Assembly: GCA_002929055.1 (NCBI GenBank)
Contig: PERY01000015.1
Coordinates: 1 to 64,000 of the forward strand
Reading direction: 5' to 3'
DNA from: Methylocystis sp.
GTDB taxonomy: Bacteria; Pseudomonadota; Alphaproteobacteria; Rhizobiales; Beijerinckiaceae
Length of the DNA: 64,000 bases
Shown here: in pieces, positions 9,847-12,153 of the stretch
How the letters are laid out: each line of letters opens with the position of its first letter
Position numbering within the stretch: position 1 is the stretch's first letter
Made by a program: the position numbers and the translations under genes
Notes under the pieces: model-generated
Databases searched by the model: none
The model's input: the letters and a program-made list of their open reading frames with translations, nothing else
What the model was told of the DNA's origin: nothing

Positions 9847-10782
9847 GTGGAGAATTTACCGTTTCTCTCTCTGCCGGGTCCGGAATTCCTCAACGTCTTC
9901 GGCGTCCTCGCGATCATCGTTCTCGTCGCGGCATGGATCGCCATTCGGCTCGCCGATCGCACGGATGTCCGTCCGCCGCCGCCCGTTCCGCAAAAGCCCG
10001 ACCCCATCGAGGTCGCCTTCCTGCAAGGCGGGGTGAATCAGGTCATCCGCACGGTTGTCTATGATCTCGTGCAGCGGGGTTACGCCGCGCTCGCGCCGGA
10101 AGATCGCATTGTCTACACCAACAAGACGCCGCAGCCGGGCGAGCTGGACCCGGTTGAAGCGCGGGTGCTCGAATCCATTCAGGCGAAGCCCAAGGCGCAT
10201 GAGCTGTTCAGCAATCTCACCGCGCGCCGGACGCTGCTGGAACGGCTGGAGCCGGTGCGCGCGCGTCTCGCCGCGCAGGATCTCATCAAGCCTGACTCGG
10301 TGAAAATCTGGCGCACGCGCGCGCAGATTTTCGGCACGCTGGCCCTCTTAGGCTTCGCTAGCGCGAAAATTTACGTCGCGCTGAGCACGGGCCACAAGAA
10401 CGTCTCCTACCTCATCTTCCTCTGCATCGCGGCCCTTCTGGCGCTGTTCGTGCTCTGCTACGCGCTCACGCGCAAACATGCGAGCCGGCGCGGACGGGCC
10501 TGGCTCGAAGCGATGAAGACCGCATATGAGCCTCGGCTCAAAGAGGCGGTCTCGCATATCGGCTCGCCAGGGCCAGAGGCGCGTGCTTTCGAAGGCGCCT
10601 CGCTCTTCCTCATCGGGCTTTACGGCTTCTCCGCGCTGAAGGGCACGAGCGAGGAGATGTTCGCCACGCATTTCAAGCGCGCCTCCGGCGATGGCGGCGG
10701 CGGCTGCGGCTCGAGCTGCGGCGGCTCCTGCGGCAGTGGCGACGGGGGAGGCGGCTGTGGCGGCTGCGGCGGCGGGGATTGA
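9847..10782 (+). CDS. TIGR04222-like membrane protein with C-terminal Gly/Cys-rich tail
   Basis: GTG start 3 nt after the ctaA stop. TM segments, then C-terminal SGDGGGGCGSSCGGSCGSGDGGGGCGGCGGGD. Confidence 0.8.
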   Translation: MENLPFLSLPGPEFLNVFGVLAIIVLVAAWIAIRLADRTDVRPPPPVPQKPDPIEVAFLQGGVNQVIRTVVYDLVQRGYAALAPEDRIVYTNKTPQPGELDPVEARVLESIQAKPKAHELFSNLTARRTLLERLEPVRARLAAQDLIKPDSVKIWRTRAQIFGTLALLGFASAKIYVALSTGHKNVSYLIFLCIAALLALFVLCYALTRKHASRRGRAWLEAMKTAYEPRLKEAVSHIGSPGPEARAFEGASLFLIGLYGFSALKGTSEEMFATHFKRASGDGGGGCGSSCGGSCGSGDGGGGCGGCGGGD

Positions 10783-11605
10783 AGCGCCGGCCCTCGGCTC
10801 CGGCATCGGCTATCGGCCGCAGTTTCGCGCCGATCTCTTCGAGAACCGCGCGCGCGTCGACTTTCTCGAAATCATCGCCGACCACTACTTCGACGCCCCG
10901 GCGGAGAAGCTGAAGGAACTCGACCTCCTGCGCGCGCATTTTCCCCTCGTCGCGCACGGGCTCGACCTTTCCATCGGCAGCGCGGAAGGGATCGACCCCG
11001 CCTATCTCGACAAATTCGCGCAACTCGTCGCGCGCATCGATCCGCCCTGGTGGAGCGAGCATCTGTGTTTCACCCGCGCGGGCGGGATCGACATCGGCCA
11101 TCTCGCGGCGCTGCCCTATAAGCAGGAGGCCATCGACGTCGTCGCCCGTAATGTCGAGACGGTGCGAAGGCGCATCAAGGCGCCGCTCGTGCTCGAGAAC
11201 ATCACGACAGTGGTGAGCGTGCCCGGCGGCGAAATGGACGAGCCCGAATTTCTGACGCGCACACTCGACGCCACCGGTTGCGGCTGGCTCTGCGACGTCG
11301 CCAATCTCTATACGAACGCCGTCAATCACGGCGTCGATCTCGACGCGAGTTTTGAGCGCTGGCCCTGGCATCGGCTGGTGCAGATCCATTACGCCGGCGG
11401 GCGCTGGAGCGGCGGCGTGCTGATCGACAGCCACGACTCGGCGACAAGTGAAGCGGTGTGGGCGCTCTACGATCGCATCGTCGCGCGTGCGCCGGTGAAG
11501 GGCGTCATCCTCGAGCGCGACGAGCGTCTGCCGCCTTTCGCCGAACTGCTCGACGAACTGGCCCGCGCACGCGCGACACTGACGGAGCGGGGCCGATGGC
11601 GCTAG
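10757..11605 (+). CDS. DUF692 / MNIO (multinuclear non-heme iron oxidative enzyme) family protein; GTG start inside the upstream Gly-Cys tail
   Basis: GSGIGYRPQFRADLF, VAHGLDLSIGS, SEHLCF, LENIT, DVANLYTNAVNHG and QIHYAGG are the conserved His/Glu/Asp blocks of DUF692. GGGGGAGG lies just before GTG 10757. Confidence 0.9.
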   Translation: MAAAAAGIEAPALGSGIGYRPQFRADLFENRARVDFLEIIADHYFDAPAEKLKELDLLRAHFPLVAHGLDLSIGSAEGIDPAYLDKFAQLVARIDPPWWSEHLCFTRAGGIDIGHLAALPYKQEAIDVVARNVETVRRRIKAPLVLENITTVVSVPGGEMDEPEFLTRTLDATGCGWLCDVANLYTNAVNHGVDLDASFERWPWHRLVQIHYAGGRWSGGVLIDSHDSATSEAVWALYDRIVARAPVKGVILERDERLPPFAELLDELARARATLTERGRWR

Positions 11606-12153
11606 GCGAGACGCAGGCGCTGCTCGCGCGCCTCTTCACGGATGTAGCGGCGCGACGGGCGTTCTTCGCCGCTCCGCAGGCCGAGGCCTTGCGCTACGGG
11701 CTGAGCGACGAGGAGGCGGCGACGCTGGCGGGCCTCGATCGCGGGGAAGTCGAGTCTTTCGCGAAAAGCCTTCTCGGCAAGCGCGCGCTCGATACCCGCA
11801 AGACGCTGCCGCTCACGGCGCGGGCGCTGGGGGACAGATTCGATCGGCTTCTATTCGAGGCCATTGATGCGCCGACGAAGGAGCGGCATCGCGGCGACGC
11901 CGCAGCGCTCGCGCAACGCCTCGCGACGACGCCTTGCAGTCCGCCGTGGATCGCTGATCTGGCGCGCTACGAAATGGCCTTTGTCGACGCCCGCCGGTCA
12001 GGCTTCGTTGCGCTGGCGCGCCGTTTCGCGTGGCCTGTAAACGACATCGCGCGCCAGCTTGCCGCGGGCGCGCGTCCGGACGTTTCTCCCCGCGGGCGCG
12101 TCGGGCTTTGGTTCCGCGCGCCGCAGGGACGAATGTTCCATCATATGTTCTAG
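11596..12153 (+). CDS. small MNIO-partner-like protein (putative substrate-recognition protein)
   Basis: Overlaps the MNIO stop by 10 nt. N-term LLARLFTDVAARRAFFAAPQAEALRYGLSDEEAATLAGL resembles partners found next to DUF692 enzymes. Confidence 0.65.
   Translation: MALGETQALLARLFTDVAARRAFFAAPQAEALRYGLSDEEAATLAGLDRGEVESFAKSLLGKRALDTRKTLPLTARALGDRFDRLLFEAIDAPTKERHRGDAAALAQRLATTPCSPPWIADLARYEMAFVDARRSGFVALARRFAWPVNDIARQLAAGARPDVSPRGRVGLWFRAPQGRMFHHMF

What the first reader, a model, noticed from the sequence alone, without database searches (positions are those of the whole stretch)
9847..12153. Candidate MNIO peptide-modification system with a membrane-anchored Gly-Cys tail as substrate
Seen: three overlapping genes. 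The first is a TIGR04222-like membrane protein ending in SGDGGGGCGSSCGGSCGSGDGGGGCGGCGGGD (5 Cys in 32 residues). The second is a DUF692/MNIO enzyme with the expected His/Glu/Asp blocks. The third is a 185-aa partner. Established: characterised DUF692 enzymes (e.g. MbnB, TglH) are iron enzymes that chemically modify Cys residues of peptides, usually with a partner protein from the same operon. Inference: the Cys tail of the membrane protein is the substrate, so the product would be a membrane-tethered modified peptide rather than a released one. I cannot tell whether this pairing has already been characterised.
Basis: partly seen in the sequence, partly recalled or inferred. Interest (0 to 1): 0.9.

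Follow-up and report, generated by a model that had tools for sequence, protein, structure and literature searches.

The report
Membrane protein with enzyme-modified cysteine tail
In the methane-eating bacterium Methylocystis, three overlapping genes appear to encode a membrane protein with a glycine- and cysteine-rich tail, an iron enzyme that probably chemically alters that tail's cysteines, and the enzyme's helper; the gene pairing was already predicted in a 2025 survey, and this study adds which cysteines are likely altered and which side of the membrane they face.

Summary
In detail: three overlapping genes, TIGR04222 membrane protein with a 5-Cys tail, an MNIO (DUF692) enzyme and a 185-aa partner. 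All nine TglH iron ligands are present. The partner has no Pfam hit, but its AlphaFold model's top PDB matches are both TglI, the partner of TglH. The pairing is not new: Antoine et al. 2025 (PMC12452194) predicted TIGR04222 Cys tails as MNIO substrates. New here: (1) at one Methylocystis locus (ctaA / fliJ flanks), MNIO, partner and Cys tail are present together or absent together; (2) Ser-Cys sites mark MNIO-linked tails (28/31 vs 10/63), while the terminal GCGGC occurs equally in both, so the core CGSSCGGSCG is the likely target, not the end; (3) charge bias and AF2 give three membrane helices with the tail in the cytoplasm, against the published periplasmic placement; (4) four MNIO-less relatives carry a radical SAM/SPASM gene in the MNIO's place. 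Family-wide, most TIGR04222 proteins sampled lack an adjacent MNIO, and the Ser-Cys association is not significant after tree correction. Modification itself is untested.

The parts
8716..9843 (+). ctaA/COX15 haem A synthase, ends 3 bases before the TIGR04222 gene; conserved upstream neighbour in Methylocystis with or without MNIO
   Evidence: PF02628 337.6 bits; synteny
9847..10782 (+). TIGR04222 membrane protein, 311 aa, probable substrate carrier
   Evidence: TIGR04222 101 bits, cut-off 43; AF2 pLDDT 86.9
9877..9954 (+). TM helix 1 (residues 11-36), predicted N-out
   Evidence: AF2 helix; hydropathy and charge bias over 78 homologues
10294..10386 (+). TM helix 2 (residues 150-180)
10405..10470 (+). 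TM helix 3 (residues 187-208), followed by RKHASRRGR, predicted cytoplasmic
   Evidence: mean 4.85 K+R after TM3 against 1.09 in the TM2-3 loop
10684..10779 (+). Gly/Cys-rich tail (residues 280-311), disordered
   Evidence: pLDDT below 50 for residues 282-311
10705..10734 (+). core CGSSCGGSCG (residues 287-296), likely modified segment
   Evidence: C-G-x-S-C-x-x-[SA]-C-G in 73 of the 74 homologues with C-x3-C-x3-C; Ser-Cys association with MNIO
10753..10779 (+). terminal GCGGCGGGD (residues 303-311), a family-wide terminus unrelated to MNIO presence
   Evidence: GCxxC in 25/31 linked and 51/63 unlinked tails; after the core in 33 of 74
10744..10751 (+). GGGGGAGG, likely ribosome-binding site of the MNIO gene, inside the tail's codons
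   Evidence: sequence; inference
10757..11605 (+). MNIO (MbnB/TglH/ChrH family) enzyme, 282 aa; ligands H67 H102 E147 D180 N183 H211 D224 H226 E253; candidate base D255
   Evidence: PF05114 281 bits; ligand mapping; conservation in 29 linked MNIOs
11596..12153 (+). TglI-like (PME-type 2) partner, 185 aa
   Evidence: AF2 pLDDT 93.6; Foldseek top hits 8hi7_A and 8hci_A = TglI

Best explanation
The operon makes a protein modified on the membrane. The TIGR04222 protein is a three-helix membrane anchor (N-out, C-in) whose disordered Gly/Cys tail lies in the cytoplasm. A soluble complex of the MNIO and its TglI-like partner oxidatively modifies the three Cys of the core CGSSCGGSCG. The product stays attached to the inner face of the membrane and most plausibly binds a soft metal such as copper, because the nearest MNIO families (bufferin/captophorin maturases) turn Cys into 5-thiooxazoles that bind copper. 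Shown by tools: gene content, ligands, partner fold, conservation, co-occurrence. Inferred: that the tail is the substrate, which Cys, the sidedness. Guessed: thiooxazole and copper.
For: Nine of nine iron ligands conserved in the window and in 28-29 of 29 TIGR04222-linked MNIOs. Partner model matches TglI at probability 1.00, TMq 0.69. Gene order tail protein - MNIO - partner conserved over several phyla; a recognisable partner in 27/31 linked and 0/63 unlinked loci. In Methylocystis the slot MerR | ctaA - TIGR04222 - [MNIO - partner] | fliJ either has both enzyme genes and the CGxSC tail, or neither enzyme gene and a tail with 0-1 Cys that ends within a few residues of the conserved helix. 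Ser-Cys in 28/31 linked and 10/63 unlinked tails, Fisher p 2e-12; Ser precedes Cys 86 times (59 expected) in linked tails and 11 times (44 expected) in unlinked tails. Every core Cys is followed by Gly, matching the Cys-Gly preference of the thiooxazole MNIO FonB (PMC12668002). Positive charge flanks put the tail inside. No other precursor-sized ORF fits in the operon.
Against: No biochemical data exist. Linkage and Ser-Cys are both clustered on the tree: on the best tree only 6-8 independent contrasts exist, Ser-Cys goes the same way in about 3 of 6 and never the other way, so the association is not significant after tree correction. The co-loss in Methylocystis looks like one event, and a single deletion across the tail's 3' end and the adjacent genes would produce it without selection. 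Three linked tails have no Ser-Cys (L137, L139, L235). Antoine et al. 2025 place the tail in the periplasm from their own models. The MNIO falls below the BufB cut-off (242.8 against 310), so thiooxazole chemistry is not assured.
Confidence: 0.66

Rival explanations
1. Same system, but the tail ends up in the periplasm: it is modified in the cytoplasm before insertion and then exposed outside, like a bufferin, as Antoine et al. 2025 propose.
For: Published topology reading of AF2 models; a short hydrophobic helix (residues 253-264) precedes the tail; bufferins are exported.
Against: That helix is 12 residues in the model and its 19-residue hydropathy reaches 1.6 in only 15% of 78 homologues, against 86-100% for helices 1-3. 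The segment after helix 3 carries the family's strongest positive charge, which fits C-in.
Confidence: 0.22
2. The MNIO and partner modify some other peptide, and the TIGR04222 protein is an unrelated or accessory membrane protein with a metal-binding tail.
For: 63 of 94 TIGR04222 proteins sampled have no adjacent MNIO and many still carry Cys tails, so the Cys tail has an MNIO-independent role. The genome also has two BufB-type MNIOs elsewhere.
Against: The operon has no other candidate ORF, the partner occurs at no unlinked locus, and tail composition tracks MNIO presence.
Confidence: 0.15
3. The tail is a thiol metal-binding or redox segment of the TIGR04222 protein that is not modified in this species; the MNIO genes are relics.
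For: Gly-Cys tails are common without MNIO.
Against: Catalytic residues are intact, and the three genes are kept overlapping in most Methylocystis examined (25 of the 30 loci fetched).
Confidence: 0.08

Closest known systems
TIGR04222 / MNIO / PME-type 2 gene clusters (Antoine et al. 2025, PMC12452194)
   Same: Same gene families, same membrane protein with C-proximal Gly/Ser/Cys segment, same proposal that the tail is the MNIO substrate.
   Different: They place the tail in the periplasm; their main text, as searched, does not report a Ser-Cys rule, the single-locus co-loss or a radical SAM alternative, and does not mention Methylocystis.
TglHI (3-thiaglutamate biosynthesis; PDB 8hci, 8hi7, 8hi8)
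   Same: All nine iron ligands; the partner's fold matches TglI.
   Different: TglA is a small scaffold peptide ending in an appended Cys; here several Cys lie in the tail of a membrane protein. Partner is 185 aa against 269.
Bufferins/captophorins (BufABC, FonABC, oxazolin)
   Same: Closest NCBIfam match of the MNIO is BufB; Cys-Gly target context.
   Different: MNIO below the BufB cut-off; no Sec-signal-peptide precursor; no DUF2063 signature in the partner; residue 256, after the candidate base, is Glu in 23 of 29 against Phe or Asp in the Lys-Cys and Cys-Lys captophorin MNIOs.
Methanobactin MbnABC
   Same: MNIO plus partner; MbnC is a weak fold match of the partner (E 9.1).
   Different: MbnA is a short peptide; MbnB match is 55 bits against a cut-off of 325.

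Membership tests
MNIO (PF05114 MbnB/TglH/ChrH) | Profile match above gathering score | tested here: met
   281.1 bits against 25
MNIO (PF05114 MbnB/TglH/ChrH) | Iron ligands of TglH (H71 H107 E151 D184 N187 H216 D229 H231 E258) | tested here: met
   H67 H102 E147 D180 N183 H211 D224 H226 E253
MNIO (PF05114 MbnB/TglH/ChrH) | Binds iron and oxidises a peptide | not testable with these tools
   Needs protein
TIGR04222 | NCBIfam cut-off | tested here: met
   101.2 bits against 43
MNIO partner, TglI-like / PME-type 2 | Follows the MNIO gene and folds like TglI/NGO1945, without the DUF2063 signature | tested here: met
   top two hits are TglI; no DUF2063 hit
MNIO partner, TglI-like / PME-type 2 | Full RRE domain | tested here: inconclusive
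   C-terminal part has three strands and one helix only, compatible with a truncated RRE
Bufferin system | BufB equivalog score | tested here: not met
   242.8 bits against 310
Bufferin system | Sec-signal-peptide precursor and DUF2063 partner | tested here: not met
   Precursor candidate is a TIGR04222 membrane protein; no DUF2063 hit in the partner
RiPP | Modified core released by proteolysis | not tested
   No protease or exporter gene in the operon; cleavage elsewhere is not excluded

The most novel reading that the evidence does not exclude
TIGR04222 is a general cytoplasm-facing membrane carrier for modified Gly/Cys tails, served by interchangeable maturases in the same downstream slot: MNIO plus a TglI-like partner acting on Ser-Cys cores, or a radical SAM/SPASM enzyme (nearest NCBIfam model SbtM, below cut-off) acting on Gly-Cys tails. 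The products would be MNIO-modified peptides that work while anchored to the inner membrane face.
Probability: 0.3. Interest if true: 0.75.

Novelty: new member of a known kind. Interest (0 to 1): 0.5.

Why it matters
MNIO enzymes are known mainly from short, soluble or secreted precursors. A membrane-anchored protein substrate would extend them to ordinary protein modification and raise the question of what a tethered modified peptide does, possibly metal handling at the inner membrane of a copper-dependent methanotroph. The work narrows a published family-level prediction to three named Cys in a genus with natural gene-minus strains, which makes a direct test simple.

Tried and rejected
(1) A natural TIGR04222-MNIO fusion (L018/L068/L103, one metagenome-assembled genome): the tail's DNA is still present in another frame and the join falls inside the conserved helix region, so I read it as a frameshift or deletion in that assembly and left it out. 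(2) Cys count or C-x2-C as the MNIO-linked feature: the terminal GCGGC is equally common without MNIO, so it was dropped in favour of Ser-Cys. (3) A tree-corrected test of Ser-Cys against linkage: too few independent contrasts. (4) PDB fold match for the TIGR04222 model: none with E below 1. (5) Defence role: no PADLOC hit. (6) PF26136, precomputed for the partner, is not in the held Pfam copy, so its meaning could not be read. (7) Plasmid search with the MNIO: only distant DUF692 proteins, below 60% identity. (8) Actinomycetota, the main home of TIGR04222 according to PMC12452194, could not be sampled: no genome handle was available.

Full report
OBSERVATION. The window lies in a Methylocystis genome: its closest MNIO relatives in named genomes are Methylocystis, and 31 of the 37 same-genus genomes carry a TIGR04222 homologue. 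The three ORFs are exactly as described. They directly follow ctaA (haem A synthase, PF02628 337.6 bits) and are closed off by an antiparallel fliJ-like gene ending at 12150, so no other precursor-sized ORF fits in the operon.

ENZYME. P0002 scores 281 bits to PF05114. The TglH iron ligands reported in PMC10880893 map one to one onto H67, H102, E147, D180, N183, H211, D224, H226 and E253 in the HMMER alignment, and these are invariant in the aligned TIGR04222-linked MNIOs (28 or 29 of 29, one row gapped). D255 is equally invariant and, from the local motif ILERD-E against LLERD-F of PDB 3bww, probably corresponds to the catalytic base described for the captophorin maturase FonB (PMC12668002); the next residue, a Cys-selectivity site that is Phe or Asp in captophorin MNIOs, is Glu here in 23 of 29. 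That correspondence is inferred from the motif, not from a FonB alignment. The nearest NCBIfam model is BufB at 242.8 bits, below its cut-off of 310, while the genome's two other MNIOs are BufB members above it.

PARTNER. P0003 has no Pfam match. Its AlphaFold model (63-sequence alignment, pLDDT 93.6) searched against the PDB gives TglI of the TglHI complex as the only two matches under 0.001 (8hi7_A E 8.7e-4, probability 1.00, TMq 0.69; 8hci_A), with MbnC far down the list (7dz9_C, E 9.1). It is therefore a TglI-like, PME-type 2 partner in the terms of PMC12452194. A recognisable relative of it is present at 27 of 31 MNIO-linked TIGR04222 loci and at none of 63 unlinked ones.

SUBSTRATE. Gene order tail protein, MNIO, partner is kept in Methylocystis, other Beijerinckiaceae genera, Nostoc, Hyella, Xenococcaceae, a Chthonomonas MAG (Armatimonadota) and a Pirellula MAG (Planctomycetota). 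In Methylocystis the same chromosomal slot, MerR | ctaA - TIGR04222 | fliJ, exists with and without the two enzyme genes; among the 30 same-genus loci fetched, the 25 with them include 24 with an intact C-x3-C-x3-C tail plus one frame-shifted assembly (L018), and the 5 without them have 0-1 Cys and end shortly after the conserved helix. The minus rows form one clade on the tree, and one deletion across the tail end and the adjacent genes would explain them mechanically, so this is suggestive and not proof.

WHICH CYSTEINES. Among homologues of P0001, 74 of 120 listed proteins match C-x3-C-x3-C; in 73 of these it reads C-G-x-S-C-x-x-[SA]-C-G, and the terminal GC-x2-C is present in only 33 of the 74. 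Across 94 non-redundant TIGR04222 proteins from Pseudomonadota, Cyanobacteria, Planctomycetota, Armatimonadota and the phylum of genome G457, Ser-Cys occurs in 28 of 31 MNIO-linked and 10 of 63 unlinked tails (p 2e-12), GCxxC in 25 of 31 and 51 of 63 (p 1.0). Ser precedes Cys more often than composition predicts in linked tails (86 against 59) and far less in unlinked ones (11 against 44). Unlinked here means no MNIO in the locus held, 1.5 kb flanks for most; 29 of the stretches were widened to about 5-6 kb each side where the contig allowed and none gained an MNIO. Relatedness weakens the statistics: the best trees allow 6-8 independent contrasts, Ser-Cys agrees in about 3 of 6 and never disagrees, and the sign test cannot reach significance. 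Exceptions are L137, L139 and L235 (linked, no Ser-Cys) and ten unlinked tails with it.

SIDEDNESS. Over 78 homologues under 70% identity, the three long helices reach TM-level hydropathy in 86-100% and the short pre-tail helix in 15%. Mean Lys+Arg is 0.33 before helix 1, 1.74 after it, 2.81 before helix 2, 1.09 in the helix 2-3 loop and 4.85 after helix 3. AF2 gives helices 11-36, 150-180 and 187-208, a 12-residue helix 253-264 and a disordered tail. The positive-inside rule then puts the tail in the cytoplasm, where the enzymes are. PMC12452194 concludes periplasmic; the two readings can be separated by fusions.

ALTERNATIVE MATURASE. Four MNIO-less loci (L091, L092, L094, L181) have a radical SAM/SPASM gene directly downstream of the TIGR04222 gene, with Gly-Cys tails. 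Its best NCBIfam match is SbtM, thio(seleno)oxazole radical SAM maturase, at 114-142 bits against a cut-off of 350 (three of the four tested), so its chemistry is unknown.

KNOWN OR NEW. Searching the held papers for TIGR04222 with MNIO or radical SAM returned only PMC12452194, which predicts this pairing for a subset of TIGR04222 proteins and leaves the modification open. The locus is a new member of that predicted kind. The Ser-Cys core, the cytoplasmic topology and the radical SAM alternative are the additions here, none yet tested at the bench.

Noticed in passing
L091:3750-4805(-), L092:3783-4826(-), L094:907-1962(-), L181:5225-6535(+): Radical SAM/SPASM gene directly downstream of an MNIO-less TIGR04222 gene; nearest NCBIfam model SbtM, below cut-off.
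   Followed up: partly
L018, L068:7104-8834, L103: TIGR04222 and MNIO read as one 577-aa ORF in one Methylocystaceae MAG; tail DNA remains in another frame, so probably a frameshift or assembly error.
   Followed up: yes
G000:C10:37855-38634 (L001), G000:C29:19067-19864 (L002): Two further MNIO genes in the same genome, both BufB-type above the NCBIfam cut-off.
   Followed up: partly
P0088-P0118: A second group of TIGR04222 homologues (about 45-50% identity), some named Methylocystis, many with CGSSC or CGAGGC tails; MNIO linkage known only for a few relatives.
   Followed up: partly
window 10691-11605: In-frame ATG upstream of the GTG at 10757 would make the MNIO start inside the tail's coding region; the true start is unsettled.
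   Followed up: no
window 13088-13321: 77-aa ORF with a DnaJ-type CxxCxGxG zinc-finger motif, below the Pfam cut-off.
   Followed up: no
window 7802-7876(-): tRNA gene, the only Rfam match in the window.
   Followed up: no
plasmids H13, H16-H23, H27: DUF692 genes annotated on plasmids of Escherichia, Klebsiella, Salmonella, Shigella and Providencia, about 32% identical to P0002.
   Followed up: no
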